Source of the DNA: a virus
Virus record (IMG/VR): IMGVR_UViG_3300035034_000418
Span: 1-33,637 of that record
DNA: 33,637 nucleotides
Direction: 5' to 3' (one strand)
Shown: positions 13,233-33,637 of the stretch, piece after piece
Numbering within the stretch: the first letter of the stretch is position 1
Layout of the letters: every line of letters starts with the position of its first letter
Made by a program: the position numbers and the translations under genes
The notes under the pieces: generated by a model
Told to the model about the DNA's origin: nothing
Databases searched by the model: none
The model's input: the letters and a program-made list of their open reading frames with translations, nothing else

Positions 13233-15622
13233 TCTACAGTAGCTCCTACTAATTTAGGAGATGGTCTAAGGGCAGCCTCAACAACGGTTTTCCAATCGTT
13301 TCCTTTTAGAACGTGTTTTACATTTTTTACTTGAAATATAACCTCAGTGTCATATGGAAATGGTAAACTATCTATCATGAAACAATCCATAAATCTAATC
13401 CCCGAAATTCCAAGAGTTTCAAACCCAATTGTAATTCCTGGAACAACTCTATTATATACAGTTGTATTTTTAGGTGACGTGTCTCGGAGCATCCCCGATC
13501 TTGCTATTTCCTCATTGGGTTCTGTAAGTCTTAATGTGAAATCCCCTTTTGTCGTACTTTTTGGATTTACTTCAAGCATAAGACAATCCGTACTAGAATT
13601 GGTATATATACCATTATTTACCTTGGCGCCAATTTCGACATCTCTATTATTGCCTGAGAATCTACTGTATATATCTTCCACGGCAACTCTTGTCCCATCT
13701 CTGGTTTTGACAGGCGACCTAAAAAAGTCAGGATTTGATGTTAAAGAATCCGGGTTTTCAAATAAGGTCTGCAACGCTACAACTGCGGGTAAGTCGGCTT
13801 TGAAATCCACCCCTGAAATCACAGAATTTGAGTCTAGACTTGAGAAGGTGTATAATTTCTCAATTAACTTATCGACCCCTATTATACCACCATTCTTTTT
13901 ATCGGTTCCTGGATAGTTTGTGTCTATGATTGACATTACACTGTAAGACTCATCTACGATGGAAAACTCCCATATTCCAGAAGCGGCGGCCGACATTTTA
14001 TCTAATATTTCTTGAACCATCTTTCGAACGGTTTGTTTATTTGCAAACGCCTTTTTAATCATAGAGTCTGAAATAAATATAGATGATAATTTGCCAGCGT
14101 AACCTCCGTAGTATGGAGTGTAAAGTGGAAAGGTAATATCGGTCTCGTCTCTAGCTCCTCTACCTGTTAGAATTTTGGCTAGATCGAATCGTGCTACATT
14201 AAAGTTTTCTACATCATATATTTCTTTCGTGCCATCTGCTGCACTAACAAGTGATTCTTTCAGTTTATCTAAAGCCGCGTCCGCTTCATCTAAGTATTTG
14301 GTGTTTTTAGAGCGGAAAATACCAGTCCCTTTAACGTTATTGACCATATCGGAGATTCGATCACCTTCATATGCCCAACACGGAGTTGCTGAATTTGGAA
14401 TTAAAACATCTTCTGATATTGATTTTATGTTGGGGTGTCCACATATATCCGACGATGATATATCAAAAACCAAAGCATCTCGTATTCCATTTGTTCCTCC
14501 TTTATTCTTGTGTGTTCTAGATGACCACCTATTGATCAGGTCAATAAACAACCCAAAAGATATCCACTTTTTATCTTTCGGTATGTTTTTGTCATCTAAC
14601 GTTAGATCAAACCTGTTAAAAGATTCTCGTGTAAAAGCGCTTATATGATTGTTTACATACTCTTTTCTGTATGGAATGTATTTTGATATTTTCTCTTTTT
14701 CGTTTTTAACAGAAGTCTCCTCAGTGGACCCACGATTTATGTAAAACTCTTGTTGTTCTACATTACCAATGTGATATTCTAAAAACGAAGAAAAATCTTT
14801 TGTTATTTGTTTTTTATCACTGTCTTTAGATTGTTTATAAGTTTGTTCTTGTGCGGTCTCATAAGCATAAATCTGTTCAGATACGGATTTCAAACTAATG
14901 TCGCAGTTGAATGAATTGTTAGATTCCAGCGTGTAACCGAATTTATCTACGATTCCTAAGAATATGTCATATTTCCCACACGACCTACATCGTTTGTATT
15001 CCCATTCATCCCATGAGTTTATTAATTCCGGAATCTTATCGTTTTCAGGGTCTAAGTCCACTAAAAGATCAGATCCTTTTTGATCCATATCATCCCAGCC
15101 CCATTCAACTAATACTGTTATTCCAGGGGTTAGAAAGTATGGAGTCAAATATTCCAATTGATATTTATCATGGCATTGTATATTAAAAGATAACTGTCTA
15201 AACACACCTTTACCACCTAACGTCTCAGAGTTCATTGATGTTACTCCTGGTGCCGGAGTTTTCAATGATGGGTATCCCAGACCAACATCTAAAGTATGTG
15301 GTTCTCCTGACCTATCTCTCCCCAATAGTTGATAGTTATTGTTACTGTTATTAAAGCCATATGTCGAATCAAACCCTTCATTGTTATACAATACAAATCC
15401 TTGTCGGTTTCTAGTTCCGTTTTTTATGGATACACGACCCAACGATGTAACACGACACCAAGCCGCACGCGTAGTATCACGTAAGTTTTTAGGATGGTCT
15501 AAGTTTCTATTTAACTTTCGAGTCTCAAACTGATCCTTTACATATTCACTAAAAGGACGTAACGGATAGATATTCTTATTTGTTACGTCATGAAAAATTT
15601 TATCACATTGTTTGTGGGCCAT
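13229..15622 (-). CDS. Large baseplate or hub-type virion structural protein
   Basis: The 797-residue protein has an N-terminal region (PAPGVTSMNSETLGGKG, RQLSFNIQCHDKYQLEYL, LTPGITVLVEWGWDD) of a type seen in large tail proteins of myoviruses. A two-Cys knuckle (CRSCGKYD) lies near residue 213. The middle holds a possible insertion rich in Lys/Glu, and the C-terminal domain has ITIGFETLGISGIRFMDCFM and PYDTEVIFQVKNVKHVLKGN, a beta-structure often found in tail-tube-like or hub proteins. It sits directly after a gp53-type gene (1-base TAATG overlap), in a run of baseplate genes. A hub or wedge role is inferred from context; no enzymatic motif is seen. Confidence 0.7.
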   Translation of the reverse strand: MAHKQCDKIFHDVTNKNIYPLRPFSEYVKDQFETRKLNRNLDHPKNLRDTTRAAWCRVTSLGRVSIKNGTRNRQGFVLYNNEGFDSTYGFNNSNNNYQLLGRDRSGEPHTLDVGLGYPSLKTPAPGVTSMNSETLGGKGVFRQLSFNIQCHDKYQLEYLTPYFLTPGITVLVEWGWDDMDQKGSDLLVDLDPENDKIPELINSWDEWEYKRCRSCGKYDIFLGIVDKFGYTLESNNSFNCDISLKSVSEQIYAYETAQEQTYKQSKDSDKKQITKDFSSFLEYHIGNVEQQEFYINRGSTEETSVKNEKEKISKYIPYRKEYVNNHISAFTRESFNRFDLTLDDKNIPKDKKWISFGLFIDLINRWSSRTHKNKGGTNGIRDALVFDISSSDICGHPNIKSISEDVLIPNSATPCWAYEGDRISDMVNNVKGTGIFRSKNTKYLDEADAALDKLKESLVSAADGTKEIYDVENFNVARFDLAKILTGRGARDETDITFPLYTPYYGGYAGKLSSIFISDSMIKKAFANKQTVRKMVQEILDKMSAAASGIWEFSIVDESYSVMSIIDTNYPGTDKKNGGIIGVDKLIEKLYTFSSLDSNSVISGVDFKADLPAVVALQTLFENPDSLTSNPDFFRSPVKTRDGTRVAVEDIYSRFSGNNRDVEIGAKVNNGIYTNSSTDCLMLEVNPKSTTKGDFTLRLTEPNEEIARSGMLRDTSPKNTTVYNRVVPGITIGFETLGISGIRFMDCFMIDSLPFPYDTEVIFQVKNVKHVLKGNDWKTVVEAALRPSPKLVGATVE

Positions 15623-15888
15623 TATATAACACTTTCTATTCTAGCAGGTATACGGATTTGTTTGCCGATGTCAACTGAATAACCAAATCCGATTCCATTC
15701 GCCCTCGCGATGACCCACCAATATGATGAATTTTTGTAATATTGTAAAGCTAGTTTATCCAACCGAGTAGTTTCATCTGTTATGATATAAATATCATTAT
15801 CTGATTTTGGGATGGGTTTTAACATCTTAGACGCAAAAACTCGTCTACCGTCGTATCTATTTCTTACGTTGTTATCTGATCTAGACAT
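15622..15888 (-). CDS. 53: gp53/LysM-like baseplate wedge protein
   Basis: At 88 residues this is a compact LysM-type tail protein. IITDETTRLDKLALQYYKN (34-52) and SSYWWVIARANGIGFGYSVD (53-72), then IGKQIRIPARIESVI, form the standard pattern found in T4 gp53 and Mu gpX-type proteins. Such proteins clamp baseplate wedge components together and may touch peptidoglycan-like geometry only by fold, not by activity. T4 gp53 is about 196 residues, so this is a minimal version. The start overlaps the previous gene's stop by 8 bases, and the stop overlaps the next start by one base. Confidence 0.8.
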   Translation of the reverse strand: MSRSDNNVRNRYDGRRVFASKMLKPIPKSDNDIYIITDETTRLDKLALQYYKNSSYWWVIARANGIGFGYSVDIGKQIRIPARIESVI

Positions 15889-18154
15889 ATTGGTTGTTGA
15901 TTGAAATGGGATCGACGGGGTTGAACATCGAATTGGGATCGAATTGATCTGCTGGCAATGGAGGTTCCATAATAGCTGGCTGTCTTAAAGAAAAGTCGTC
16001 TCTGTCGCCGAATATAGGAACGCCCGTTTTTGGAAGCTCTTTTTCAAGCAGTGTAGTTGATAGTGACAACTCAACTAAGAATGGGAGTTGGCGATATAAG
16101 TCTTTTTCAGCACCAGGAGGTGGTCCTATTTCCCAAGACGATTCATCCGGAACACTTAATGCGATGGACTTAATTATTAAAGGTTGTTTTACGAACAAAT
16201 CACCCATCGTTAACTTTATAAAAGGTGGTAAGTTTATATTATATCCCCCATGGTGTAGAGTGTTCGATGGGTATGTCATAGTTTTTAGATAGTTAATCTT
16301 CTTCCACATGGGAATGAGGTCTTCAACGGAGGTGGCATACACTCTAAAGTTGAAACTTAAATCTCGTGTAAATCCGTTATATGAATACACCTTATCAGCA
16401 CGTCCGACATATCTCATGTCTGACCATTCAGCGGTTGTGTTGTTGGATATAGATTTAAGAGTTGCTCGGAACGTCAAATATTTTTGGTTCACAACATCAA
16501 AAAACTTAAATTTTATCAAGTCTTTAAGTAATGACGACTGATTCTCTTCCGGCGTTTCTAACAACTGTTTTGTTATTGGGTCCGGTCTATGCATTCCAAG
16601 AGAAACTCTCGTTTTCAGTTTTCCGCTATATTCTGGAAATTTATACTTGTTTTCAATGGCAGACTCACGTAATTTTCCATAATATATGTTTGAAGGTGTC
16701 ACATATCCCCCCACGTTATCACCGGTGCCGATTTTATTTCTGGCACCCGCAACACGGCCCATAGTTTCTCTTAAATCTTCGTATGGATACTCTTCAACCG
16801 AATCTTCTTCACTGAATAAACGGCGACGGTAGTTCGTCTGGTAATCTTTAAAAGGCTTTTTTTCTACTAAACCACTTCCGTGTTTTCCGGTTTCGCTGAG
16901 TATATCTTCATATCCGTTTCCGGATGGGGCGACTTTTTTACCACTTAAGGTCGGGTCACCGCTGTTATACTGTATATCTTCTGGCCCATCGTTTTGTAGC
17001 AACGGAAAAGCGTTACGTAAGAATCTCGATTGGGGGTTTTTGCCATACTTATTCTGTAGATGTGGTGGGGTGTCTTTATACTCTTTTAAATATTGTCTGA
17101 GTTTAGACTTGTCATTTGTTAAGAGGCCATAACGTATGTTCTCAACAGCATTTGAATATGTACCCTCACGGTTGATTCCAAGCTGGCTATTCACAATACT
17201 GAGGGTTTCAGTTGGCGCGGAATATTCGACCAATCGTTCTTTAGATTCAAACGGGTTTATTGTTGTATATAAGGTGTTGACAGGAAGAAGCCGTGTGGTT
17301 GATATTTTATTAGATTCACCAATCATTAAACTGTATGTATCTTCATCGGCTCTATATTTAAAAGATCCCGGCTGGCTGGCACCGACACTAGGAGCGTACT
17401 TACTTAACAGAGTTTTAAAAAATCCCGAACTTTTGGGGTCACCCGGATCCCAGATTTTCTTTAGGTTATTAAACCCTGCCGTCGCTGTATTTCCTCTCAG
17501 TAAACCGTAGTGACTATCACTGCCTTCTCCTTTACTATGTGGTAAAACGTTGTCAGAAACGTCTACAGTTGAGTTCGGGATTCCGAAATCTTTACCGCCT
17601 AATTTATTTATTACAGCGCCGAGTAGACTTCCGCCACCCAAATGTTTTGTTACTCTAGGAATCAATCCTAACCCGAGTGACCTACCCGTCGATACCAAGT
17701 GTGACGTGGGGTCGTTGATGTTCGTTTCGTCAAACGGTGCTTGAAAATGTAATAGTTGTTGAAGCAATAAAAACTTCAATCCATATCCAGAAAATGTGAA
17801 TTTGGTAATTCTTTCAACGTCTTGAATCGAAGACCCAACCGGAAACATTCGACTATCGAACCTCTTTATACCTTTTTTAAAATCAGAATCTCCTGGATTT
17901 ACTATGACATAAGGCTGTTGTGCTCCAACAGCATAGAACGGAGCCCCCTTATTATAATCAGCATCGTCTCTATATAACCTCTTTTCTTGTGCGTCGAATC
18001 GAGTGGCGTTGTTGCTATAATTGCCTGGAACTATGCTTATAGGTTGATTACCCAGCCCACGGGGTGAAAACTGTGAGTTTGTGTTTTCTGTAAAAACAGT
18101 TGGCGAACTTGAATTGTCTAAAAGTCCTATTAAATTACCATCGATATCTGCCAT
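15881..18154 (-). CDS. Large tail/baseplate structural protein (757 aa)
   Basis: Residues 100-150 contain SIQDVERITKFTFSGYGLKF and LLLQQLLHFQAPFDE, a pattern found at the start of large phage tail proteins. The middle is Gly/Asn/Ser-rich with low similarity to anything I know. The C-terminal 200 residues are the best conserved-looking part: YLTFRATLKSISNNTTAEWS, MRYVGRADKVYSYNGFTRDL, SFNFRVYATSVEDLIPMWKK and LPPFIKLTMGDLFVKQPLII. This resembles a tail-tube-initiator or LysM-adjacent baseplate domain that recurs in myoviruses. It lies between the tape measure and gp53-type genes, where tube-initiator or hub proteins are expected. Function is inferred from location. Confidence 0.7.
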   Translation of the reverse strand: MADIDGNLIGLLDNSSSPTVFTENTNSQFSPRGLGNQPISIVPGNYSNNATRFDAQEKRLYRDDADYNKGAPFYAVGAQQPYVIVNPGDSDFKKGIKRFDSRMFPVGSSIQDVERITKFTFSGYGLKFLLLQQLLHFQAPFDETNINDPTSHLVSTGRSLGLGLIPRVTKHLGGGSLLGAVINKLGGKDFGIPNSTVDVSDNVLPHSKGEGSDSHYGLLRGNTATAGFNNLKKIWDPGDPKSSGFFKTLLSKYAPSVGASQPGSFKYRADEDTYSLMIGESNKISTTRLLPVNTLYTTINPFESKERLVEYSAPTETLSIVNSQLGINREGTYSNAVENIRYGLLTNDKSKLRQYLKEYKDTPPHLQNKYGKNPQSRFLRNAFPLLQNDGPEDIQYNSGDPTLSGKKVAPSGNGYEDILSETGKHGSGLVEKKPFKDYQTNYRRRLFSEEDSVEEYPYEDLRETMGRVAGARNKIGTGDNVGGYVTPSNIYYGKLRESAIENKYKFPEYSGKLKTRVSLGMHRPDPITKQLLETPEENQSSLLKDLIKFKFFDVVNQKYLTFRATLKSISNNTTAEWSDMRYVGRADKVYSYNGFTRDLSFNFRVYATSVEDLIPMWKKINYLKTMTYPSNTLHHGGYNINLPPFIKLTMGDLFVKQPLIIKSIALSVPDESSWEIGPPPGAEKDLYRQLPFLVELSLSTTLLEKELPKTGVPIFGDRDDFSLRQPAIMEPPLPADQFDPNSMFNPVDPISINNQYV

Positions 18155-21219: not shown

Positions 21220-21642
21220 TTAAATCGACGAGTATGACGGTTTTAAGTTTATGAATTTCAATAAAGAATCTACGTATTCATTTTGACTTGATTTATTCAT
21301 AGTGTGTATATCTTCATTTTCATATCTTCTGCCGGTAGTTAGATTGAACCTATTAATAAAATTTCTAACATCTTTTTCTCTCATTCTAGCAGAAGATGAT
21401 CTCTCATGAATCTTTTTTAAAATCTTTTCATTTGTTTTATATGCTATAACATACGACTTTATAATTCTGTCACGAAAATCATTGTAAATCTTTTGTGCTT
21501 TTTTACTTCTTGTTTGAGTTCTAGCAATTTTTTCGAACGCACCCTTCGGAGAAACTATAGTTCCTAAACTATCCAAGAATCCTTCTTGTGTAAGTTCATC
21601 GATGGATTCTTTGATAATGTTTCTAAGTTCATTTTTGTTCAT
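21220..21642 (-). CDS. Small basic protein with amphipathic leader MNKNELRNIIKESIDEL
   Basis: ATG 21642 is preferred over a TTG five codons upstream because it has the leader GATATTTATAAACATG seen at other starts. The first 17 residues, MNKNELRNIIKESIDEL, form an amphipathic helix closely similar to the start of several other proteins in this window. The rest (about 124 residues) is basic and helical: GAFEKIARTQTRSKKAQKIY, then RDRIIKSYVIAYKTNEKILK. It sits 9 bases before the tape measure start and after a terminator, so it may lead the tail operon. The function is not recognised; a packaged or virion-associated protein is possible from the leader. Confidence 0.72.
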   Translation of the reverse strand: MNKNELRNIIKESIDELTQEGFLDSLGTIVSPKGAFEKIARTQTRSKKAQKIYNDFRDRIIKSYVIAYKTNEKILKKIHERSSSARMREKDVRNFINRFNLTTGRRYENEDIHTMNKSSQNEYVDSLLKFINLKPSYSSI

Positions 21643-21701: not shown

Positions 21702-21992
21702 TTACCCTTTGGGTATATTAGGTCGTGTGATAGGAGGTTGTGAACTCTGAGATTCCGATCCCTTGTCCATCTGTTTCTTTTCTTCTTCTTTAGCCAATTT
21801 CAGTTCATTTAGATAGAAACGTCTAAGGTTAACAGGTAAGTTGTATACGACGTCCTGATTGAAAGCGCCTTCGGAGTAGTAAGATAGACTAAAGATTTCT
21901 TTATGGAGTTCGACTTTATAACTCGGCGTCAGGCCAAAAAAAGCTGATGCCCATTGGCATCGGTATCCTCCCCTCATGATCACAATGTTCAC
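21702..21992 (-). CDS. 51: gp51-like baseplate hub/tape-measure chaperone part (possibly frameshift product)
   Basis: As a separate reading frame this gives 96 residues: FFGLTPSYKVELHKEIFSLS, YNLPVNLRRFYLNELKLAKE, then a charged tail. The YNLPVxxRRFYxxEL pattern is typical of the small protein, or fused tail, encoded just before the tape measure in T4-like phages (gp51 or GT-type). The first 25 residues before FFGL overlap the gp26-like gene and look unlike protein (MNIVIMRGGYRCQWASA). No Shine-Dalgarno precedes ATG 21992, while AGGGGAGG lies inside. It may be made only as a fusion through a +1 shift at the T7 run (21936-21942). If so the product joins SFF to GLTPSYK. Confidence 0.7.
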   Translation of the reverse strand: MNIVIMRGGYRCQWASAFFGLTPSYKVELHKEIFSLSYYSEGAFNQDVVYNLPVNLRRFYLNELKLAKEEEKKQMDKGSESQSSQPPITRPNIPKG

Positions 21993-22812
21993 ACACGAAG
22001 TCGAAGGTCATGTCAAAGTCGGGAGATGATTCTTTTATATGTTTTCTAAACTCTCTAGCGTCACGAGCTGTTAATTCTTTGTCCACAAAGTTCTTAACCA
22101 ACTGTCTGTCAGTCTTCCCGTCAACGGCAACAATCATATACTTTAACCTTGTAGTAACTTCTGGACTTGTCGCATTCTTATTCACCTTCGATAGAGATTC
22201 TAATTCTTGTGAAATTGATTTCTCATCGTTTCCAGTTAAGAATTTGTAAGTAATATTTCTCTTTGATATTGGGAGTTGGTAAGTAAACTCATTAACTCCC
22301 TTCGTAAAGCCACTGAAATCAAAATCCTTATTGGCCATAGCAGCCAAGTCAATTGTCACTTGGTTTTCTTCGCCACATTTAGGACATGAAACCTTAACCT
22401 CATACTTAGGTCCATACGCCAAAATACGAGCAGCGACGAATACAGCATTTCTATCTCCTACGATTAGATCGCCCGATGAAACGCCGTTAGTAACTATCAA
22501 CTCATCAAGAAGTCGGTCGAGAACAACACCCTTCTTAATCAAATTTTGTGAAGTTAAAATATCTTCTTCCTTGGCGGTCATATATTTCAACTCAAGTCTA
22601 CCTTTAGAGAGGATGGAATCCTCCGGGTAAAAATACCCCTCAGACGGTAAATCAATGGTTTCTGTGGGATACGTAAATGTCGTTTGGTTATTTCCGCGTG
22701 AAGATTGTTGTGCTACGTCGTTCTCTAACTGTGAAAGAACCTCTGGAGATACATCGATATTCTTATTAACCTGATTAGAATCAGACTTACGGATTGGTAT
22801 ATTATCACTCAT
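21916..22812 (-). CDS. 26: gp26-like T4-type baseplate hub protein with zinc knuckle pairs
   Basis: The 298-residue protein fits the T4 baseplate protein family (gp26 and relatives). PTETIDLPSEGYFYPEDSIL (50-69) and LELKYMTAKEEDILTSQNLI are the conserved start. LIVGDRNAVFVAARILAYGP follows, then a CxxC pair (VSCPKCGEENQVTIDL) and a second pair near the end (VCEHCDHEGRIPMPMG), which could form one zinc site. The C-terminus ISFFWPDAEL is the usual end. Such proteins build the central hub and probably chaperone the tape measure before tail assembly. The upstream leader lacks a strong Shine-Dalgarno. The gene overlaps the gp51-like frame by 77 bases. Confidence 0.82.
   Translation of the reverse strand: MSDNIPIRKSDSNQVNKNIDVSPEVLSQLENDVAQQSSRGNNQTTFTYPTETIDLPSEGYFYPEDSILSKGRLELKYMTAKEEDILTSQNLIKKGVVLDRLLDELIVTNGVSSGDLIVGDRNAVFVAARILAYGPKYEVKVSCPKCGEENQVTIDLAAMANKDFDFSGFTKGVNEFTYQLPISKRNITYKFLTGNDEKSISQELESLSKVNKNATSPEVTTRLKYMIVAVDGKTDRQLVKNFVDKELTARDAREFRKHIKESSPDFDMTFDFVCEHCDHEGRIPMPMGISFFWPDAEL
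21936..21942 (-). promoter_or_regulatory. Candidate +1 slippery site (T7) between gp26-like and gp51-like frames
   Basis: The gp26-like frame reads AGC TTT TTT TGG. A +1 slip of the second TTT onto the same run gives AGC TTT TTT (T) GGC CTG, exactly the gp51-like frame. The stop of the first frame is 18 bases later. An internal AGGGGAGG lies about 22 bases upstream. Confidence 0.45.
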
Positions 22813-22882: not shown

Positions 22883-23413
22883 TTATTTCAAAAGGGCACC
22901 GAAGTCTTTAACTTCAAATAATGGTTCTTCGTCGGAAGTCTCTTCATCAGCAACGTCTTCTTTATCATCTTGTGCGTCAGATGTAGTTTTCTCTAATGAC
23001 GGATCATATTGTCCTTGATCGGATAACTCATCTTGATTATCGTCAAATGTGTGTTGATCTGTCAAATCCTCATCTGCCATCTCATCCTCTGGTTGAGGTT
23101 CTGGATTGGCCGCTGAAACATATGAAGGAGCTGTGTTTTGGAGGTGGGTCATTAAGTCGGCTACAATCTTTTCAACTTTTGATATGTCAACGCCTTGTAA
23201 AGCGCCTGAATTAACTAAAGTCTTTACAGCTCCCGTAATGATTCCTTTTGCTTTGTTAGGATTTAAACCACTCTTAGATTGTTGCTGGGGGTCGTCCGGC
23301 TGTTGTTGACCCTGTTGCTGATCCTGTTCAGGCTGAAAAGCTTCCGCTAACAATCTTTTTCTCTGAGTTCTAATCTCTTCTTTTACAATCTTTTTGATAT
23401 CTGATGACTTCAT
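22883..23413 (-). CDS. Acidic Gln-rich protein with amphipathic leader
   Basis: The 176-residue protein starts MKSSDIKKIVKEEIRTQRKR then LLAE|AFQP, a basic amphipathic helix ending in a sequence that looks like a T4-type prohead protease site (LxE). A Gln/Pro-rich stretch (DQQQGQQQPDDPQQQSK) follows, then one ordered helical part (AVKTLVNSGALQGVDISKVE, KIVADLMTHL), and then a long acidic tail ending ADEETSDEEPLFEVKDFGAL. It resembles prohead core or internal proteins in composition: charged, helical and disordered. The leader AATATTTATACACATG contains the shared motif. The function is not known. Confidence 0.75.
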   Translation of the reverse strand: MKSSDIKKIVKEEIRTQRKRLLAEAFQPEQDQQQGQQQPDDPQQQSKSGLNPNKAKGIITGAVKTLVNSGALQGVDISKVEKIVADLMTHLQNTAPSYVSAANPEPQPEDEMADEDLTDQHTFDDNQDELSDQGQYDPSLEKTTSDAQDDKEDVADEETSDEEPLFEVKDFGALLK

Positions 23414-24148: not shown

Positions 24149-24921
24149 CTATAAATAGTCTGTAGGTATAAGATTTTTGAGTTTAATATTTTCGGCTGCT
24201 ATTGGTTTATATTTGTCTGGGTTCATCAACTTATCCATCTGACGCATATCTTTCATCGTTTTTATAAACTCTGCTCGTTTATCCTTATCCATCTTACTAA
24301 CAAACGAATAACTATCAGAACCTAATAAACGTTTCATATCTTCGGGTTTGAAATTTGAGGGTTGTATTATCTTTTTTAGGTTATGTTCGAATACAACCCC
24401 AACCTTTTGATCTGGCAACCTTTTCAAAATTACTCTTTGACCTTTCTTATTTCCTAATATCGCTTGTTTTCGAGACTTAGCAACTTGTGGTAATAGCAGA
24501 AAATCTTAATCCATTTGAAAAATTTCTTTGGGTCTTCAACAATCTGAGATGAAAAGTATCTGAACTCTATTGTATTTCGGCGACGGGTGGATTGTAAATT
24601 TGTACCGAATTATCAGGTTCTGGATTGTCATATTCCCAACTACCCACATCGTCGGGCGCGGGATATTTTTTTACAACCCATTCAAAATAATTAAACTCAA
24701 ATGGCAGAGGTTCAAATCTAATTAGGTGGTCTACAATCTTAGATTCGTAGCGCTGGGCCAGCTCATCTATATCCACATCATAAACCTTACCAAATTCAAA
24801 TTCTACTCCGAATGTTCCTGGTCCAAAAGCTTTTTGTCCGTGTTTTTTTTAAACCACGTTCAACGTCTCGTAATTTATCAAACGAAACCTTTTCAATCAA
24901 ACTTTTTAATTTCACACTCAT
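24149..24921 (-). pseudogene. One gene broken by three frameshifts (unknown function, amphipathic leader)
   Basis: Two separate ORFs here (24149-24427 and 24567-24776) and their flanks read as one protein if three single-base shifts are allowed. From ATG 24921: MSVKLKSLIEKVSFDKLRDV and ERGLKK, then a shift at an A8 run (24843-24850) to HGQKAFGPGTFGVEFEFG and DIDELAQRYESKIVDHLIRF. A second shift near 24590 leads to RRRNTIEFRYFSSQIVEDPK, and a third near 24507 leads to DFLLLPQVAKSRKQAILGN and the C-terminus ending LIPTDYL. The TFGVEFEF strand recalls amidoligase-like proteins, weakly. The start again has the leader helix. Decay or sequencing error are both possible; total length would be about 255 residues. 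Confidence 0.7.
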
Positions 24922-24938: not shown

Positions 24939-25568
24939 CTATCGAGCATAATAATGTAATCTTACATGGTTGGTATATCCAAAATCTATCAATACCGGCA
25001 ATTCTTTTCCATTCCTTTTAACAACACCCCAACTACTAGGTCTTACTATATCGTCTACCTGCAGCTCTATGTTGCCGACTAAGTCTATTAGTTGAGAAAC
25101 ATATTCATGTTCCCACAAGTCATCCATACGTTCCTGTGAGATGCCGTGGTCGTAGTTATGAGCCATTCTATTTTGTGGGTCGTTTGCATTTAAAAAAGTT
25201 TCCAACTCATCCAACTTAATACCTAACAAATTTTCCAATTTCTTTTTGGCCCTTGACAAAGGTATGGCTAATTCCATTTCTATCCAATACGGTGAATCGT
25301 GCATATCGTCGTAGTCTAATACATCAGCTGTAATATCCATCAGTCCAAAATACCCATCGGTTTCGACTTGGTTTTGTGCTAAACCTTTAGGGTTATGAGC
25401 AACTTTAAGAACTTTTGTGGAGTCAATTTGAAATACGGTTCTTGATGAACCAGAACCTAATCGCTTCAACTTTTCATTGGCATATCGTTTTCGTGCTGCA
25501 TACGAAGGAATCGCATTAAACTTGGCCATTGAAAACGATTCCGGATAATCTTCATTTATAATTTTCAT
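24939..25568 (-). CDS. Protein kinase-like protein
   Basis: Residue numbers are counted from the farthest possible start (25631). LGSGSSRTVFQID (58-70) is a glycine-rich loop, VLKVAHN carries the nucleotide-binding Lys76, YWIEMELAIPL (115-125) is like a hinge, DDIVRPSSWGVV (193-204) takes the place of the catalytic loop, and VLIDFGYT (213-220) is the metal-binding DFG. The catalytic-loop HRD is not visible, so activity is uncertain. ATG 25568 is chosen because it overlaps the previous stop by only 17 bases and follows AAAGAAAG; ATG 25589 gives MNLTKESMKIINE, similar to the leader peptides. It directly follows the ADP-ribosyltransferase-like gene. It may be a virion-delivered host-takeover kinase; this is inference. 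Confidence 0.68.
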   Translation of the reverse strand: MKIINEDYPESFSMAKFNAIPSYAARKRYANEKLKRLGSGSSRTVFQIDSTKVLKVAHNPKGLAQNQVETDGYFGLMDITADVLDYDDMHDSPYWIEMELAIPLSRAKKKLENLLGIKLDELETFLNANDPQNRMAHNYDHGISQERMDDLWEHEYVSQLIDLVGNIELQVDDIVRPSSWGVVKRNGKELPVLIDFGYTNHVRLHYYAR

Positions 25569-26166
25569 ACTTTCTTTTGTTAAATTCATATGCTGCCAAT
25601 AAATGTTCCACGGCGCCTTCGTCGTTTTCATAAAAATTGTCTCTTGGGTATTTGTTAATACCTATTATCTTTTCGCCATTTTTAATTCTTTCTGCCCGTT
25701 TTCTGCTTCCATTAGAAAGTTTTAAATACCTATCTTTCATGTCTATAGTTTGTGGGTAGTACCCCCACTCCAACAACGAATTCCCTTCGGTAAATATATC
25801 TCTAGCAGATACCGTCTTAGATACAATCTTAAATTCGTTGTTTAATGAATTCTCTCCGTGGTCTTTAGCATATTGTCGTGATATTGTTACCCAATCACCA
25901 ACATTAATAGATGGTTTTATACCTTTTGGGATTGATCTATATATTTTCAAGTTTTGATTCGGCTTTCCTTTGAATGATTTAATCATGTGATACGCTCTAA
26001 TATCATCGGCTTCGCCGGTTGTATAATACCTTGCGCCGTTATGGGAGTAGAAGTCGTCGGGATATATCCCCCCCAATGTCACGTCATATAATGGTGAACC
26101 ACTGTCTTTATCAGGAGCAGAGTGTTGCCCTCTGTAAGACTCAATTATTAAATCCTTGAGATTCAT
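25552..26166 (-). CDS. ADP-ribosyltransferase-like protein with leader peptide
   Basis: From ATG 26166 (preferred over TTG 26187, giving MNLKDLIIESYRGQ) the protein is 204 residues. LKIYRSIPKG holds Arg77, GDWVTISRQYAKDHG holds Ser96, and LLEWGYYP holds Glu133. Together these give the R-S-E triad of ADP-ribosyltransferases, in the style found in phage head and polyvalent proteins. Such enzymes transfer ADP-ribose from NAD to host proteins. T4 Alt, a packaged ADP-ribosyltransferase with a cleaved N-terminal targeting peptide, is the obvious parallel: here MNLKDLIIE|S could be that peptide. The gene overlaps the membrane/coiled-coil gene upstream by 26 bases and the kinase-like gene downstream by 17. 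Confidence 0.72.
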   Translation of the reverse strand: MNLKDLIIESYRGQHSAPDKDSGSPLYDVTLGGIYPDDFYSHNGARYYTTGEADDIRAYHMIKSFKGKPNQNLKIYRSIPKGIKPSINVGDWVTISRQYAKDHGENSLNNEFKIVSKTVSARDIFTEGNSLLEWGYYPQTIDMKDRYLKLSNGSRKRAERIKNGEKIIGINKYPRDNFYENDEGAVEHLLAAYEFNKRKYENYK

Positions 26167-26795: not shown

Positions 26796-28448
26796 TTAGA
26801 GATTTCTATTATAACTCCTCCATATATACTTTATATTCCCACAGTCATATATTTTATCATAGCCGTTTAACTGCATATTCTCATACTCTGACAACTCAGT
26901 GTGAAATACTTTCAATTTCTTATGCAAAATCGATTTTCTAAAATTGAAACGGTGGTGTCTTATATTATAACCATTCTTGTAATACCAATAGTTTACCTGA
27001 GTTAAATGTGAAAAGACGAAACCCATCTTATCATACACCGATTGGTGAACAGCGGTAAACCTTCTATCTGCATATGTAACCACTGTGTTCGGTGAGTTGG
27101 TTCTAATGAAATGTTTAAATAATTTACTGGCGATTCCAATTATATTTGTTTTTGTAGCAAACCTCATCAATTCGAATTCTGATGGTGATGGGTGACTCCC
27201 CAGTGATATTCTACCACTTCCAAATGTCATAACCGCTACCAATTCGTCATTGTAATACGCGCCATATCGTATTGAACTCTTATCGTTTCCTTGTATATGA
27301 TGTGATTCTAAGAAGTCCCGTTTTGTATTAGGTGAAATTTCTTTAATTATACACTTTCTGGCATAAATCTTGTAATTCACACACCCCAATTTATGTCTCA
27401 GCTTTTCTTTTATAACATCTTTCTTGTTAATCCATTCATCTTCAAATATATGAATTAACTGAACACCCATCTCTTCACATAATTCGGTCTTTTGTAAATG
27501 ATATAGTTTATCGACTGATGAATATGAGTGATAATATAGTGAGTTGTATTCAATCGCTATTTTCTTATTCTCTATATATATGTCCAATTCTCGGTCTTTA
27601 ATTACGTCTCTACGGTGTTGAGTGAGTTGATTCGGCGGCATAATCTCTTCTAAGAATTCTACAATCTCATTCTCACATACCGACCCTTTATTTAAGGGAT
27701 AACAATTTAGACATCTAGGAAGATGTCCACCGTCAATGTGATCTTTAAATTCACAGTCACATCTTAAACATTTAAACTTGTAATGATTCCTTCGGTCGGT
27801 TGTGATGTATTCATCAAACTCGAATAATGGAACTACCTTTAAATTCAATTTATGAACGGTCTGTAGCTTATTATAAAAACTCTTTTTATATGATTGATGC
27901 TTTCGATCCTGAATTTCTCTGACCTGAGACGGATGAGTTACTCCGTAGTTGTTCGTATAGTAGTTACATATCTTTTGTTTGATTTCATCAGATGCAAACA
28001 CATTATCGACTCCATAACGTTCGTTTACAGTATCCTTTACAGCTTTTTTGGTAGATTCCAACTGTGACATGTTATCCACTCCGAATTTATCTTTTATATG
28101 TTGTTTGAACTCATCGGTTTTAAAATATGAATCCGTCCCGTAATGATCAATACAACTCTGTTTAATCTTTTTCTTAACATGATCAGATTTAGATACGTTA
28201 TCCACTCCGTATTTTTTTATACATGTAGATTTGGCTTTGTTTGGATTTACGAAACTACCATTACCGTAGCGTTCGAGCTTTGTTTGTTGTATCTTCGACA
28301 ACCTATCCACATCGTTTGCTGTATATTGGGATGAACATTTACCGTTACAAAACTTCTGCGCTCGTGATATCAAGCTTTCAAATTCACTGCCACAGTGTTG
28401 ACAATGTTGAGTGTGCCAATATTTTGGATTTTTGTCATTCGTAACCAT
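26796..28448 (-). CDS. Large Vsr-like homing endonuclease (copy 1)
   Basis: This 550-residue protein has an N-terminal zinc finger (CQHCGSEFE, FCNGKCSS). A series of about five DNA-binding repeats of the form (I/V)xxRYGVDNVxxSDxxKxK follows (about 45-180), with a second zinc finger (CLRCDCEF, CLNC) at 227-249. The Vsr-type nuclease core is RELDIYIENKKIAIEYNSLYY (286-306), then LIHIFEDEW. A conserved C-terminal domain follows (SHHIQGNDKSSIRYGAYYND, VVTYADRRFTA, YDKIYDCGNIKYIWR). Free-standing homing endonucleases cut phage genomes that lack them and spread by repair. It lies directly after the tail tube gene. AGGTTGAG sits before ATG 28448, and reading is intact, so it is probably functional. 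Confidence 0.86.
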   Translation of the reverse strand: MVTNDKNPKYWHTQHCQHCGSEFESLISRAQKFCNGKCSSQYTANDVDRLSKIQQTKLERYGNGSFVNPNKAKSTCIKKYGVDNVSKSDHVKKKIKQSCIDHYGTDSYFKTDEFKQHIKDKFGVDNMSQLESTKKAVKDTVNERYGVDNVFASDEIKQKICNYYTNNYGVTHPSQVREIQDRKHQSYKKSFYNKLQTVHKLNLKVVPLFEFDEYITTDRRNHYKFKCLRCDCEFKDHIDGGHLPRCLNCYPLNKGSVCENEIVEFLEEIMPPNQLTQHRRDVIKDRELDIYIENKKIAIEYNSLYYHSYSSVDKLYHLQKTELCEEMGVQLIHIFEDEWINKKDVIKEKLRHKLGCVNYKIYARKCIIKEISPNTKRDFLESHHIQGNDKSSIRYGAYYNDELVAVMTFGSGRISLGSHPSPSEFELMRFATKTNIIGIASKLFKHFIRTNSPNTVVTYADRRFTAVHQSVYDKMGFVFSHLTQVNYWYYKNGYNIRHHRFNFRKSILHKKLKVFHTELSEYENMQLNGYDKIYDCGNIKYIWRSYNRNL

Positions 28449-28572: not shown

Positions 28573-29069
28573 TTAATATTGTAAAATAGCATAGTCAAAT
28601 GCTAACGTGCAGTTAACCATTACTGGCTCACCATTACTCCAATCCATTCCGTTAAAGTTGGCACTTGCAACAAATGCACCTTTCAATGTCCACTCTTCAA
28701 CTTTATCACCTACAGGACCGAGAACATTGATAGTAATATCCTTTTTATAAAAATCAGCGTAACCGTCTCTACCTGTAACGGATTCGTGTGATAAACGAAT
28801 CCACTCCATAACTGCTTGTGCAGCCGAAGGAACGATTGGGTCGTAAAGTGTGATATCAAGATCAGCCCACTCTGACTTACCCTTTAGTTTACGGTAGACA
28901 TTGATGTGGTCCAATTTGATTGGATTGTTGTTAATTTGTGGTCTAGCTGCTGTCTTGATAAGATATGCAGGAATTCCATCAATATACATGATAAAACGAT
29001 TTTGAACTTTTGGTTCAAAAGCGGTAAGAGAATAAAAAAAATTTCATTAGCTTCCAATAAGTCTGCCAT
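28573..29069 (-). CDS. 19: Tail tube protein (gp19-type), frame broken at a T8 run
   Basis: The long open part (from ATG 28989) is IMYIDGIPAYLIKTAARPQI, DHINVYRKLKGKSEWADLDI, TLYDPIVPSAAQAVMEWIRL and TLAFDYAILQY, a clear gp19-type tail tube protein. The true N-terminus is in another frame: ATG 29069, after AGAGGATC, gives MADLLEANEIFF; after the T8 run (29034-29041) the frame YSLTAFEPKVQNRFIMYID continues. Joining them needs one extra T or two fewer. The tube protein is essential for a contractile tail, so either the assembly has an indel, or the phage slips at this run. Two endonuclease genes flank it, one on each side. Confidence 0.85.
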
Positions 29070-29222: not shown

Positions 29223-30719
29223 ATGGGAAGGCCAAGAAAAAATCCACTGACAATTAAAAAGATATGTGAACATTGTAATAAGGAATTTGAAATTTCATAT
29301 AACAAGAAGAATCAGAGATTTTGCAACAAACACTGTTCGAACTCATGCAATACAACTAAAGATAAGATACGGAAATCTCAAAATATTACATTTGATAAAA
29401 AATACGGCGGACATCCAATGACAACTGACAATGTAAAAAAGAATTTTCAGTCCGCTATGGAATCTAAATATGGAGTAAAACATGCTCTTCAAAACTCCAA
29501 CATACTCAAAACCATGAAATCCACTAAAATTGAGAGATATGGAGATGAGAATTACAACAACGAAGAGAAAAGAAAACAAACCTGTCTACAGAGATATGAC
29601 GTTGATAACATAAGAAAATGTGAGTGGTATAAACCTATATTGGCAGACCACCGAAGAAATAACCATTATGAGTATCTATTAAACTATTTCAAAGAGAGAA
29701 AATTAACTCTTCTTACTACACCGCAAGATTATAATGGTATCTGGTCAGGCGACAAATATGAATTTTGTTGTGATGATTGTAATAATAGATTCGTGAGGCC
29801 GTTATATTCTATTGCAAGCATAGAATGTGACGTATGTAATCCCAGCCCAAGATATAAAGAAGAGAACTCCTTACATACATTTCTATTAGAAACGTGTAAC
29901 GATTTAATAATAGAACGTAGAAACCGAATAATACTGAAAGGTCAAGAGTTGGATTTTTTAATACACAAAAAAAGATTAGCAATTGAGTATAATGGGTTAT
30001 ACTGGCATTCAGAATCTAGAGGAAAAAATAAAATATATCATTTAAATAAAACCGTTCGGAGTTTAACTATGGGATATAATTTAATACATATATTTGATTA
30101 TGAATGGAATACAAAACAGGAAATTGTAAAGAGTATAATTCGTTCAAAAATTGGTGAGAAGGTAGAATTGTTATACGCCAGAAATTTCAAAGTTAAACAA
30201 GTCGAATCTAACATTTCAAATTCATTCTTAATCAACAATCATATACAAGGAAAAGACAACGCTCCTATAAGATATGGGTTGTTTAACAAACATGATGAAT
30301 TAATGTCATTGATGACATTCCGCAAGTCTAGGTTTGATAAATCTGTAGAATATGAGTTGAGTCGTTTTTGTAATATATTAAACGTTTCTATCACAGGTGG
30401 AGCAAGTAAATTATATTCCCATTTTGTTAAGAATCATAATCCCAACAGCGTAATATCATATTCCGATAGAAGATATTTCGATGGAAATTTATATAACGTA
30501 TTAGGATTCGATTTTATCAACAATACTGCGCCTGGATTCCATTTTGTTTCGCCGGATTATAAAACACTATACAATTGGCAACAGTTCCAAAAACATATGT
30601 TGAAAGATAAACTAACAGGGTTCGATCCAAATTTGACCGCATGGGAGAATATGAAAAACCACGGCTTTGACCGAATATGGGATTGTGGAAATTCCAAATG
30701 GATATGGAAGTCTACTTAA
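29223..30719 (+). CDS. Large Vsr-like homing endonuclease (copy 2), plus strand
   Basis: The 498-residue protein is the same family as the 26796-28448 product: zinc finger (CEHCNKEFE, FCNKHCSN), repeats (IERYGDENYNN, LQRYDVDNIRK), a second zinc finger (CCDDCNNRF, CDVC) and the nuclease core KGQELDFLIHKKRLAIEYNG (about 239-258) with LYWHSES and LIHIFDYEW. The C-terminal domain (NNHIQGKDNAPIRYGLF, VISYSDRRYFDG, FDRIWDCGNSKWIWKS) is closely alike. It is inserted between the tail tube gene and the 73-residue gene, on the opposite strand. Its stop overlaps the stop of the convergent gene over TTAA (30716-30719). TTGACA at 29163 with a weak -10 about 17-18 bases on is a possible promoter. Confidence 0.86.
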   Translation: MGRPRKNPLTIKKICEHCNKEFEISYNKKNQRFCNKHCSNSCNTTKDKIRKSQNITFDKKYGGHPMTTDNVKKNFQSAMESKYGVKHALQNSNILKTMKSTKIERYGDENYNNEEKRKQTCLQRYDVDNIRKCEWYKPILADHRRNNHYEYLLNYFKERKLTLLTTPQDYNGIWSGDKYEFCCDDCNNRFVRPLYSIASIECDVCNPSPRYKEENSLHTFLLETCNDLIIERRNRIILKGQELDFLIHKKRLAIEYNGLYWHSESRGKNKIYHLNKTVRSLTMGYNLIHIFDYEWNTKQEIVKSIIRSKIGEKVELLYARNFKVKQVESNISNSFLINNHIQGKDNAPIRYGLFNKHDELMSLMTFRKSRFDKSVEYELSRFCNILNVSITGGASKLYSHFVKNHNPNSVISYSDRRYFDGNLYNVLGFDFINNTAPGFHFVSPDYKTLYNWQQFQKHMLKDKLTGFDPNLTAWENMKNHGFDRIWDCGNSKWIWKST

Positions 30720-30937
30720 CGAGTCTTTTTTTGAAGGGTAGGATGGCGTGTGTAAGACGCTTGTCGTATTTCTACTTCATAAGCATTTCCATCGGTCATT
30801 CTTACAAGAGCTGCCATGCCGTCTACTGTTGTCGAAACCTCAACAACTTTGTCTACACCTGACATTTTCTTCAATTCCTGTATAAAGTTCACTATACGTG
30901 TAGGTCTTGACTCTTGTAATAGTGATTTTAAGTTCAT
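30716..30937 (-). CDS. 73-residue protein with leader-type N-terminus
   Basis: The protein begins MNLKSLLQE|SRPTR, which fits the short leader pattern ending in LxE, then a small alpha/beta domain: RIVNFIQELKKMSGVDKVVE, VSTTVDGMAALVRMTDGNAY, EVEIRQASYTRH. If the leader is removed, about 64 residues remain. The function is unknown. Its stop overlaps the stop of the plus-strand endonuclease, so the endonuclease gene abuts it exactly. Confidence 0.72.
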   Translation of the reverse strand: MNLKSLLQESRPTRIVNFIQELKKMSGVDKVVEVSTTVDGMAALVRMTDGNAYEVEIRQASYTRHPTLQKKTR

Positions 30938-32582: not shown

Positions 32583-32834
32583 TTACTTTAACATCCGTAT
32601 GGCATCATCACACATTTCAGCGTCATTCGGATTAATATGTCCAACGGCAGATTCCACTTTGTCTAATAATTCACCTACCATTTGATACAACTGCTGATTC
32701 TTCTTGGTTTCAGCATAACGCAAAAGATTTTGTAAATCATCAGTTACACTTGTTTCACCTGTTTCACCTGTGGTTTCTGATAATATCTCAGTTACACATT
32801 CCCGAATGATAGATTTAAGTTTCGATTTGTTCAT
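32583..32834 (-). CDS. 83-residue protein with amphipathic leader
   Basis: ATG 32834 is chosen over upstream starts because it gives the leader MNKSKLKSIIRECVTEILSE, which ends LSE|TTGETGE. The leader is preceded by GATATTTATAACC. The rest is acidic and helical (SVTDDLQNLLRYAETKKNQQ, LYQMVGELLDKVESAV, NDAEMCDDAIRMLK). The extended upstream frame overlaps the next gene and is unlikely to be translated. The leader closely matches the C-terminal helix of the 30958-31458 product. The function is unknown. Confidence 0.74.
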   Translation of the reverse strand: MNKSKLKSIIRECVTEILSETTGETGETSVTDDLQNLLRYAETKKNQQLYQMVGELLDKVESAVGHINPNDAEMCDDAIRMLK

Positions 32835-32837
32835 GGT

Positions 32838-32847
32838 TATAAATATC
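32838..32847 (-). promoter_or_regulatory. GATATTTATA motif before the 83-aa gene
   Basis: The minus strand reads TTTGATATTTATAACCATG, with the motif 3 bases before the start. It overlaps the stop of the endonuclease gene (32846), so the gene would be expressed apart from the endonuclease. Confidence 0.4.
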
Positions 32848-33637
32848 AAACAGTTGGAGATTCCCATATAAATTTTAAATTCCCACAATCCCAGATTCTA
32901 TCATATCCGTTTAACTGCATATTTTGCCACTCAGTTAAGGTTGGGTCAAAATTTTCTAACTTGTCTTTTAACTTGTGTTTTTGAAAGTTAACTCTGTTGA
33001 GTATTTGGGAGTTGGTAATGTAATGATACGACGGGGGTGTATTTCCAACAAATTCAAATCCCAGGTTTAAGTAAACCCCTCCATTAAAATATCTCATGTC
33101 TGAGTAACTTACAATTGATATCGGATCATTGTGTTTAACAAAATATTTAAACAGTTTCGATGCTCCCCCAACTATTCGTGTGTTGAGGATGTTACAATAT
33201 CTACTCATTTCATATTGAACCTTCTTATCAAATCTTGATTTACAGAAAGTCATAACAGATACTAATTTCCCATCCATAAAAAGTCCGATTCGTGTAGATG
33301 ATCTATCAGACCCCTGAATATGGTTTGCGTTCAAAAATGCAGAACATATACTAACAGGTATTTCCTTTATAATACATTTTCTTGCATAAACTATATTATC
33401 ACATGAGCTGAATCGGTTACGTAATATGCTTTTTACTATTTCCGTTTTGTCAAACCATTCGTTTTCAAATACCTGTATCAATGTGATGTTCTTCTCAATA
33501 CACATATCCCGTTTCGATAAATGGTATTGTTTGTCTTTACCACCGGAGATTTCCGAATGCCAATATAATCCATGATATTCCACTCCCAACTTCAATTGTG
33601 GATCGAATACGTCGATTTCCATCTTATTATCTAACGG
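32846..33637 (-). CDS. Vsr-like homing endonuclease (copy 3), 5' end outside window
   Basis: The reading frame is open to the window edge; the visible part begins with the nuclease core LDNKMEIDVFDPQLKLGVEY, then HGLYWHSEIS and LIQVFENEW. It keeps the full C-terminal domain (NANHIQGSDRSSTRIGLFMD, SIVSYSDMRYFNGG, YDRIWDCGNLKFIWE). The N-terminal zinc finger and repeats seen in the other two copies should lie beyond 33637. It is closer to copy 2 than copy 1 by eye (VGGASKLFKYFVKH versus TGGASKLYSHFVKN). The gene is upstream of the 83-residue gene and reads through to its leader. Confidence 0.85.
   Translation of the reverse strand, partial: PLDNKMEIDVFDPQLKLGVEYHGLYWHSEISGGKDKQYHLSKRDMCIEKNITLIQVFENEWFDKTEIVKSILRNRFSSCDNIVYARKCIIKEIPVSICSAFLNANHIQGSDRSSTRIGLFMDGKLVSVMTFCKSRFDKKVQYEMSRYCNILNTRIVGGASKLFKYFVKHNDPISIVSYSDMRYFNGGVYLNLGFEFVGNTPPSYHYITNSQILNRVNFQKHKLKDKLENFDPTLTEWQNMQLNGYDRIWDCGNLKFIWESPTV

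What the first reader, a model, noticed from the sequence alone, without database searches (positions are those of the whole stretch)
24939..26166. Adjacent ADP-ribosyltransferase-like and kinase-like genes, both with leader-type starts
R77/S96/E133 in one and a Gly loop, Lys and DFG in the next suggest two protein-modifying enzymes made from overlapping genes in a structural-gene region. This resembles a host-takeover cassette delivered with DNA. The kinase lacks a visible HRD motif, so it may be a divergent kinase or a pseudokinase.
Basis: partly seen in the sequence, partly recalled or inferred. Interest (0 to 1): 0.72.

Follow-up and report, generated by a model that had tools for sequence, protein, structure and literature searches.

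The report
Likely head-packaged phage kinase and partner
Two neighbouring phage genes appear to make a stripped-down kinase and an ADP-ribosyltransferase-like protein, both starting with a short tag like the removable one phage T4 uses to load proteins into its head, so the phage may inject them with its DNA to reprogram the bacterium.

Summary
The motifs are real and where stated. The gene at 24939-25631 (-) encodes a divergent, C-lobe-truncated kinase: its AlphaFold model (pLDDT 87.7) matches kinase-superfamily structures in all 50 listed Foldseek rows. Gly61, Lys76, Glu90 and Asp216-x-Gly218 are kept in at least 49 of 50 homologues, but the HRD Asp is Glu189 in this copy. Pfam has no model for it. 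The gene at 25552-26166 (-) has invariant R77 and E133 (48 of 48) in ART-like order. Calling it an ART is probable, not proven: the best structural match over that domain is KptA at Z 5.3, and a profile comparison with T4 ModA/ModB/Alt found nothing.

The strongest result is the leader. Both proteins begin with a stretch ending in I-x-E, the T4 gp21 cleavage motif, just before the fold. In the kinase family [LIVMF]-x-E precedes the fold in 44 of 50 homologues. The VH7D relative of the ART-like protein begins MKTYTEFLSE, nearly T4's capsid-targeting sequence. Slicko01 and L042 carry rows of leader-bearing genes with this kinase; an ART-kinase fusion exists (L041). Gp21-type protease genes occur in 4 of 5 tail-module relatives tested.

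Best reading: ejection proteins packed with DNA. No virion or enzyme data were obtained. New variant of a known kind.

The parts
25552..26166 (-). ART-like protein P0002 (204 aa); phrog_2579, which PHROGs names 'ParB C-terminal domain'
   Evidence: AlphaFold pLDDT 86.3
26140..26166 (-). Leader of the ART-like protein, MNLKDLIIE: hydrophobic P7 (L3), P4 (L6), P3 (I7) and P1 Glu9
   Evidence: sequence; strict leader motif hit; T4 motif L/I-x-E from PMC9026906 section 9
25747..26139 (-). ART-like core, residues 10-140, with R77 (beta 1), T94-x-S96 (beta 2), E133 (beta 5)
   Evidence: A4 columns, DSSP of the model, KptA match over residues 15-138
24939..25631 (-). Kinase-like protein P0001 (230 aa from the first ATG); phrog_4301, unknown function
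25551..25589 (-). Probable leader of the kinase from Met15, MNLTKESMKIINE, ending at Glu27 (I25-N26-E27)
   Evidence: A3 alignment: Glu 45/50 at the neighbouring column (P0001 is shifted by one), [LIVMF]xE 44/50; residues 7-17 and 19-26 have pLDDT <50
25440..25457 (-). Glycine-rich loop G59-S-G-S-S-R64
25404..25406 (-). Lys76 (VAIK-type lysine)
   Evidence: 50/50
25050..25067 (-). Catalytic loop E189-L-Q-V-D-D194 (HRD Asp replaced by Glu here; Asn replaced by Asp)
   Evidence: secondary structure
24978..24986 (-). D216-F-G218 (DFG)
   Evidence: D and G 50/50
21220..21642 (-). Other leader-type protein, MNKNELRNIIKE|S, between the 1009-aa gene and the hub gene
   Evidence: strict motif
22883..23413 (-). 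Acidic protein (pI 4.3) with leader-type start MKSSDIKKIVKE|E (loose motif, Val at P3)
30716..30937 (-). 73-aa basic protein (pI 9.8) starting MNLKSLLQE|S, the window N-terminus most like that of the ART-like protein
   Evidence: (p = 0.052)
32583..32834 (-). Leader-type protein from an internal ATG, MNKSKLKSIIRE|C

Best explanation
The two genes encode ejection (internal head) proteins of a distant T4-type myovirus, probably of a Bacteroidota host. Each has a short N-terminal capsid-targeting leader that ends in I-x-E. Inferred steps: the leader loads the protein into the prohead core; a gp21-type (S77) prohead protease removes it; the mature enzymes, about 195 and 203 aa, stay in the head and enter the cell with the DNA. 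There the kinase-fold protein binds ATP and phosphorylates (or otherwise modifies) a host protein, and the ART-like protein ADP-ribosylates a host target, so that the host is changed before phage genes are expressed, as T4 Alt does. Shown here: the kinase fold and conserved ATP-site residues, the invariant R/E residues of the partner, the conserved leader with an L/I-x-E-type site in homologues, leaders shared among unrelated neighbouring genes in some phages, an ART-kinase fusion, and S77 protease genes in relatives. Inferred: packaging, cleavage, injection, enzyme activities and targets.
For: Kinase fold: the 50 listed Foldseek rows are kinase-superfamily enzymes, best E 3.4e-5; VIA best Z 8.3, its 50 listed rows all kinase-type folds. 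Leader: [LIVMF]xE in the six residues before the conserved Pro in 44 of 50 homologues, 38 of 50 with L/I, against 11 of 266 tails (L/I) before other prolines of the same proteins (a count made after seeing the pattern). The low-confidence start of the model ends where that site lies. Standalone relatives of the ART-like protein start MKTYTEFLSE (VH7D), MYSFSEFINLAE, MKLTNLINFLLEE (L042), MKDLFSILLRE (L093), MINFKEYLME (L129). T4 control: the strict motif finds 8 of 194 T4 CDS typed from the first 133 kb, among them ipII, ipIII and gp24. In the 80 kinase loci 73 of 1085 called genes have the motif (P3 = L/I/V) against 199 of 9012 internal stretches. Slicko01: 6 of 22 ORFs of the locus carry the strict motif, in one row that ends with the kinase (whose own start, MKIYNLYSTLLE, is similar but misses the strict pattern); one of the row is ART-PolyVal, E 2.1e-11. 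L042: 6 of 16 ORFs, including three kinases and this ART-like family. Leader sharing between the kinase and other genes of its locus: 9 of 59 loci p<0.05, combined p 7.5e-5. ART-PolyVal fused to the kinase in L041, E 4.5e-19. S77 protease: 17 of 31 records with the kinase or, for VH7D, the ART-like protein; 5 of 5 isolates; 4 of 5 records related by the tail module.
Against: No virion proteomics or cleavage data for any member were obtained; the XacN1 virion paper does not name ORF170 in its main text (passages). The window's kinase leader lacks the hydrophobic P7 (Ser21), needs an internal start, and is not significantly similar to other window N-termini (p = 0.74; 0.48). Only 21 of 59 kinase ORFs pass the strict CTS-like pattern. 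In the first, Shine-Dalgarno-based run the window was at background (1 of 35 genes). The window holds no protease gene (fragment). The ART assignment is not confirmed by profile comparison or Foldseek. The genes lie in a tail module, and leader-type starts also occur on window genes of unknown place in the virion. RM378 and Muenster homologues show no evident leader although both phages have an S77 gene. [quoted passage not shown]
Confidence: 0.62

Rival explanations
1. The leader is a targeting or interaction helix for another structure (tail or baseplate) and is not cut; the two proteins are tail-associated or assembly factors that never enter the host.
For: The genes sit between tail tube and hub genes. 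Leader-type N-termini (strict or loose) also occur on other genes of the same region: 5 of 17 called genes after 21.2 kb, the ART-like one included, against 0 of 17 before it, p 0.022.
Against: In two relatives the same kind of start is on genes next to the S77 prohead protease (L183, L181; in L181 also on the protease ORF itself). The motif ends in the gp21 recognition sequence in most aligned kinases, and the VH7D relative starts almost like T4 IPII/IPIII.
Confidence: 0.17
2. The pair acts inside the cell after expression, as a toxin-antitoxin or anti-defence pair, and the leaders are coincidental.
For: Overlapping genes; the mycobacteriophage relative (Wiggin) has no leader and lies among small, mostly hypothetical genes, with no S77 protease found in its record.
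Against: The pair is not a conserved couple: this ART-like family was found in 3 of 24 kinase-bearing records searched (window, G010, G017) and 0 of 5 others. Each also occurs alone, in large ORFs, or in rows with other leader-bearing genes.
Confidence: 0.12
3. The kinase-fold protein is an ATP-binding pseudokinase, or uses ATP for another transfer such as AMPylation, and the partner is not an ART but another NAD- or nucleotide-binding domain.
For: HRD Asp is Glu189 here; Asn is Asp in 50/50; no ART profile match; no Glu or Gln two residues before E133 in P0002, where ExE-type ARTs have one (ExE recalled).
Against: The catalytic-loop Asp is kept in 32 of 50 relatives; Lys, alpha-C Glu and DFG Asp are kept. 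The only listed VIA row over the partner's core is KptA, an ART-superfamily enzyme (superfamily per PMC9503650).
Confidence: 0.3

Closest known systems
T4 internal head proteins IPI-IPIII and Alt with capsid-targeting sequences cut by gp21 (PMC9026906, passages and section 9 read)
   Same: Short N-terminal leader, L/I-x-E cut site, hydrophobic residues at the positions that matter for targeting (ART-like protein); perhaps the same kind of enzyme as Alt.
   Different: No similarity of the mature part to T4 ModA/ModB/Alt in the profile comparison; no kinase is named among the T4 internal proteins in the passages read; packaging not shown.
Polyvalent proteins of phages and conjugative elements, with ART and kinase domains (PMC5512222, passages read)
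   Same: ART and kinase domains as probable injected host-modifying enzymes; many relatives of the ART-like protein are domains inside very large ORFs; this kinase too lacks most of the C-lobe.
   Different: Here they are small separate proteins with leaders. The conserved Gln that the paper gives for the last N-lobe strand is not seen: in strand 116-120, as I read it, position 120 is Glu in 47 of 50. The paper's alignment file was not seen.
Putative protein kinase of Klebsiella/Salmonella jumbo phages (Muenster gp043, Munch)
   Same: Homologous by tblastn; the Muenster annotators called it kinase from HHpred.
   Different: Muenster's copy has no evident leader.
Bacterial effector minimal kinases (SteC, NleH2)
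   Same: SteC is the best PDB sequence hit, E 0.0078; NleH2 is among the structural hits.
   Different: Sequence similarity is weak and over the N-lobe only; they are secreted effectors of bacteria, not phage proteins.
Phage P1 DarB capsid-targeted antirestriction protein (PMC9024508, passages read)
   Same: N-terminal capsid-targeting segment that can carry a reporter into the head.
   Different: No common sequence among the P1 Dar N-termini according to that paper.

Membership tests
Protein-kinase-like superfamily (P0001) | Kinase fold | tested here: met
Protein-kinase-like superfamily (P0001) | Gly loop, VAIK Lys, alpha-C Glu, DFG Asp | tested here: met
   G61, K76, D216, G218 50/50; E90 49/50; G59 35/50
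Protein-kinase-like superfamily (P0001) | HRD Asp and following Asn of an active kinase | tested here: not met
   Window: Glu189 and Asp194. Alignment: Asp 32/50 at 189, Asp 50/50 at 194. Lowers 'active canonical kinase', not the fold.
Protein-kinase-like superfamily (P0001) | Full C-lobe with activation segment | tested here: not met
   Protein ends 12 residues after G218; only one short helix follows
ADP-ribosyltransferase superfamily, R-S-E clade (P0002) | Arg on beta 1, [ST]-x-S on beta 2, Glu at beta 5 (pattern recalled) | tested here: met
   R77 48/48, T/S94 46/48, E133 48/48; S or T at 96 only 24/48; placement by DSSP
ADP-ribosyltransferase superfamily, R-S-E clade (P0002) | Fold match to solved ARTs | tested here: inconclusive
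   No Foldseek hit with E<0.001, cholera toxin A1 at rank 50 with E 5.7; KptA Z 5.3, rmsd 3.0, 74 aligned, the only one of 50 listed VIA rows on residues 15-138
ADP-ribosyltransferase superfamily, R-S-E clade (P0002) | Profile similarity to known phage ARTs (ModA, ModB, Alt) | tested here: not met
   hhalign Prob 0.1 (of 100) against a three-sequence profile; no ART family among Pfam or NCBIfam matches of 48 members
T4-type capsid-targeted, gp21-processed internal protein | L/I-x-E in the N-terminal region before the fold | tested here: met
   I7-I8-E9 in P0002; I25-N26-E27 in P0001; 38 of 50 aligned kinases
T4-type capsid-targeted, gp21-processed internal protein | Hydrophobic targeting residues at CTS positions 4 and 7 (P7 and P4) | tested here: inconclusive
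   P0002 met (L3, L6). P0001: I24 at P4, Ser21 at P7; strict pattern in 21 of 59 kinase ORFs
T4-type capsid-targeted, gp21-processed internal protein | S77 prohead protease in the same genome | tested here: inconclusive
   None in this 33.6-kb fragment; present in 4 of 5 tail-module relatives and in 17 of 31 other records
T4-type capsid-targeted, gp21-processed internal protein | Cut protein found in virions and ejected | not testable with these tools
   needs virion proteomics

The most novel reading that the evidence does not exclude
Distant T4-type myoviruses use one removable capsid leader as a general loading signal. Genes that acquire it (minimal kinases, ART-like enzymes, ParB-like proteins, sometimes fused with a protease site between the parts) form exchangeable rows of head-delivered host-modifying enzymes, so a phage can bring kinase and ADP-ribosylation activities into the cell before it expresses any gene.
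Probability: 0.5. Interest if true: 0.78.

Novelty: new variant of a known kind. Interest (0 to 1): 0.6.

Why it matters
If true, it extends the T4 Alt/IP principle to a kinase family that no Pfam model matched and of which one conserved pattern found 180 confirmed stretches in IMG/VR. It would also give a sequence rule, L/I-x-E after a short amphipathic start, for predicting which unknown phage genes are injected, and so a testable list of cell-entry effectors from raw genomes.

Tried and rejected
Single-sequence IMG/VR searches with P0001 and P0002 found no relative; alignments were needed.

Gene calling by Shine-Dalgarno gave wrong starts in the window, because it has almost no such sites (3 of 27). 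In that run the leader motif in window genes was at background (1 of 35; 13 of 407 internal stretches). First-ATG calling was used afterwards.

ART by profile: A4 against T4 ModA/ModB/Alt, against five genes of the Slicko01 row and, as a negative control, against the kinase alignment gave nothing. The PDB profile searches gave no hit and one hit I take as chance, E 0.28. The 15 BFVD hits with E below 0.001 bear no ART name; a MuF-C protein follows at E 0.011.

The strict leader pattern missed T4 ipI and Alt, and besides ipII, ipIII and gp24 hit mobB, agt.5, 49.2, gene 2 and gene 30, of which I count at least four as chance: it is neither complete nor specific. Same-strand genes one or two places from a kinase carry it in 17 of 156 against 22 of 443 elsewhere, p 0.011: weak. 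The window kinase shares no leader with its neighbours.

S77 absence in 24 records chosen for ART-like relatives is a poor control: most are small or fragments, and two of them, L093 and L129, do carry leader-type copies.

None of five tail-module relatives tested carries the kinase; RM378, also related by the tail module, does. Papers: no hit for 'internal head protein' with 'protein kinase', 'virion' and 'bacteriophage', nor for RM378 with 'prohead protease'; subscription journals and preprints are not covered.

Rows dropped: A3 uses 49 of 58 dereplicated hits (of 83) plus P0001; A4 uses 47 of 57 (of 81) plus P0002. 60 of 80 kinase loci were kept; 59 of 63 loci were usable. IMG/VR returned the best 80 of 180 and 80 of 232 matches. 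The T4 control leaves out some short and split CDS of the tables and everything beyond 133 kb.

Full report
What is there. On the minus strand, 26166-25552 encodes a 204-residue protein (P0002) and 25631-24939 a 230-residue protein (P0001), partly overlapping. The window is a 33,637-base virus record. Around them are a gp19-like tail tube gene (28573-28989), a baseplate-hub gene (21916-22812, phrog_150), a baseplate-wedge-like gene (15622-15888), a 1009-aa gene without family match that stands where Flavobacterium phage immuto has its tape measure gene, and further on replication genes and homing endonucleases. The seven records found by the 15881-18154 protein are four Flavobacterium phage immuto records, an uncultured 484-kb phage, Microcystis phage Mel-JY01 and Rhodothermus phage RM378. 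Shine-Dalgarno sites are nearly absent (3 of 27). Of six genome contigs that encode the kinase, three are titled Paludibacteraceae, Bacteroidota and Lishizhenia (all Bacteroidota, the first and last recalled) and three Clostridium or Clostridiales. A Bacteroidota host is likely, not shown.

The kinase. P0001 belongs to phrog_4301, function unknown; all 50 members of my alignment hit it. Pfam has no model that matches it (one of 50 members reaches Pkinase at E 0.091). The AlphaFold model from 50 homologues has mean pLDDT 87.7 and pTM 0.81. Foldseek lists aminoglycoside phosphotransferases APH(2''), CK1, ULK1 and NleH2, best E 3.4e-5, 8 matches with E <= 0.001. VIA-align gives Z up to 8.3 and lists only kinase-type folds in its 50 rows. 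By sequence, the best PDB hit is the effector kinase SteC, E 0.0078. Lys76, Asp194, Asp216 and Gly218 are 50/50 and Glu90 49/50. Residue 189, at the HRD Asp position by secondary structure, is Asp in 32 of 50 but Glu here; the usual Asn five residues on is Asp in all 50. The protein ends 12 residues after the DFG glycine, so most of the C-lobe is missing. It is a minimal, divergent kinase; whether this copy is active is open.

The partner. P0002 belongs to phrog_2579, named 'ParB C-terminal domain'. A relative in record G017, which also holds a leader-bearing kinase, has before the ART-like part a stretch that looks ParB-like to me; Pfam did not confirm that. Of 173 phage records with a relative, 150 are mycobacteriophages and 9 Vibrio phages; others are large ORFs of uncultured phages. 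Arg77, Glu133, Tyr99, His103, Gly90 and Trp92 are 48/48. Strand/helix order puts Arg77 on the first long strand, T94-x-S96 after the next strand and before a helix, and Glu133 at the last strand: the order expected of R-S-E ARTs (recalled). But hhalign with T4 ModA, ModB and Alt gives Prob 0.1 of 100, Foldseek finds nothing significant in the PDB (cholera toxin A1 is rank 50, E 5.7), and the only listed VIA row over the core is the ART-superfamily enzyme KptA, Z 5.3. I put the ART assignment at about 0.65.

The leader. T4 gp21 cuts after L/I-x-E; CTS residues 4 and 7 direct targeting, 8 and 10 processing (PMC9026906, section 9 and passages). Relative to the cut Glu these are P7, P4, P3 and P1. 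P0002 starts MNLKDLIIE|S and fits all four. A relative in VH7D starts MKTYTEFLSE, against MKTYQEFIAE in T4 IPII and IPIII. Across the kinase alignment a Glu stands just before the fold in 45 of 50 at one column, and [LIVMF]xE lies in the last six residues before the conserved Pro in 44 of 50 (38 with L/I). The L/I form precedes other prolines of the same proteins in 11 of 266. This count was made after seeing the pattern. In P0001 it is I25-N26-E27; residues 7-17 and 19-26 have pLDDT below 50 and the fold follows. P0001 itself lacks a hydrophobic P7. Where the kinase is fused behind another part, as in L046 (DUF6934 in front) and L056, the same motif stands between the parts, which suggests processing of a joint precursor.

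The leader moves between unrelated genes. In Alishewanella phage Slicko01 a row of genes starts MKIDxLYExxLEE or similar; one is ART-PolyVal (PF18760, E 2.1e-11) and the last is the kinase. In L042 three kinases and a relative of P0002 share MKLxxLIxxLLE-type starts, among 6 of 16 ORFs with the strict motif. Mel-JY01 has three genes starting MIKLxSLxxE with an H-x-T segment that resembles ARTs to my eye (Pfam silent on the two tested). Over all kinase loci the motif is about three times commoner at gene starts than inside genes, 73 of 1085 against 199 of 9012; in the ART-like loci 18 of 833 against 94 of 7682. In a permutation test over 59 loci the kinase leader is closer to N-termini of its own locus than expected in 9 loci at p<0.05, combined p 7.5e-5; the window is not among them, p 0.74. 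ART-kinase fusion: L041, PF18760 E 4.5e-19; L051 has an ART-like N-terminal part by eye only, Pfam silent.

Protease. S77 (PF03420) was found in 17 of 31 records that hold the kinase or, for VH7D, the ART-like protein: 5 of 5 isolates, 10 of 11 metagenomic records of 195 kb or more, 2 of 15 smaller ones. Of five records related to the window by the tail module, four have it; the fifth is 7.5 kb. Next to the protease in L183 and L181 lie genes with the same kind of leader. In 24 records chosen for ART-like relatives, mostly fused or leaderless and mostly small, none was found.

Mechanism and confidence. I think both proteins are loaded into the prohead by their leaders, trimmed by a gp21-type protease, and ejected with DNA to modify host proteins. 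My estimates: kinase fold 0.95; the kinase family head-targeted 0.8; this copy 0.7; partner an ART 0.65; both acting on host proteins 0.55. The precedents are T4 Alt and the polyvalent proteins (PMC5512222, PMC9503650, passages read). PMC9503650 already argues that ARTs are often packaged in myovirus heads. No paper on a leader-bearing packaged kinase family came up in my searches (listings, with passages of seven papers read).

Noticed in passing
window 24567-24921 (-): A gene broken or frame-shifted at a run of eight A near 24850: the upstream piece starts MSVKLKSLIEK (read by eye), the other frame reads on as KKHGQKAFGPGTFGVEFEFG, which resembles putative amidoligases (recalled; Pfam finds nothing).
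   Followed up: partly
window upstream of 21642, 23413, 24146 (TATTTATA) and 18154 (TATTTAT): The motif starts exactly 11 nt before the ATG of these genes. TATTTATA lies within 40 nt upstream of 5 of 28 genes against 0.18 expected by its density. It may be a late promoter with nearly leaderless mRNA.
   Followed up: partly
window upstream of 4188, 5312, 9985: TAAATAAA starts exactly 9 nt before the ATG of three replication-module genes, 3 of 28 against 0.12 expected: a possible early-gene counterpart.
   Followed up: no
window 26796-28448 (-), 29223-30719 (+), 32846-33622 (-): Three homing-endonuclease-like genes of one family (phrog_3339) within 7 kb, one between the tail tube gene and the ART-like gene.
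   Followed up: no
window 1374-1859, 2099-3220, 3355-4188 (-): DnaB-like helicase matches (phrog_19) spread over three consecutive ORFs covering different profile parts; possibly split by introns, inteins or frame changes.
   Followed up: no
window 602-1372 (-): Mom-like DNA modification protein (phrog_1384, E 8.6e-46) beside the helicase pieces.
   Followed up: no
L177:33724-36166 (Mel-JY01): Leader-bearing genes (MIKLKSLLQE, MIKLKSLLKE, MIKLMSLVTE) with an H-x-T segment like that of the Slicko01 row; perhaps ART-like ejection proteins without a Pfam model.
   Followed up: partly
L039, L090, L077: The kinase domain lies in very large ORFs of 1220-1788 aa, so it also occurs in polyvalent-type proteins.
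   Followed up: no
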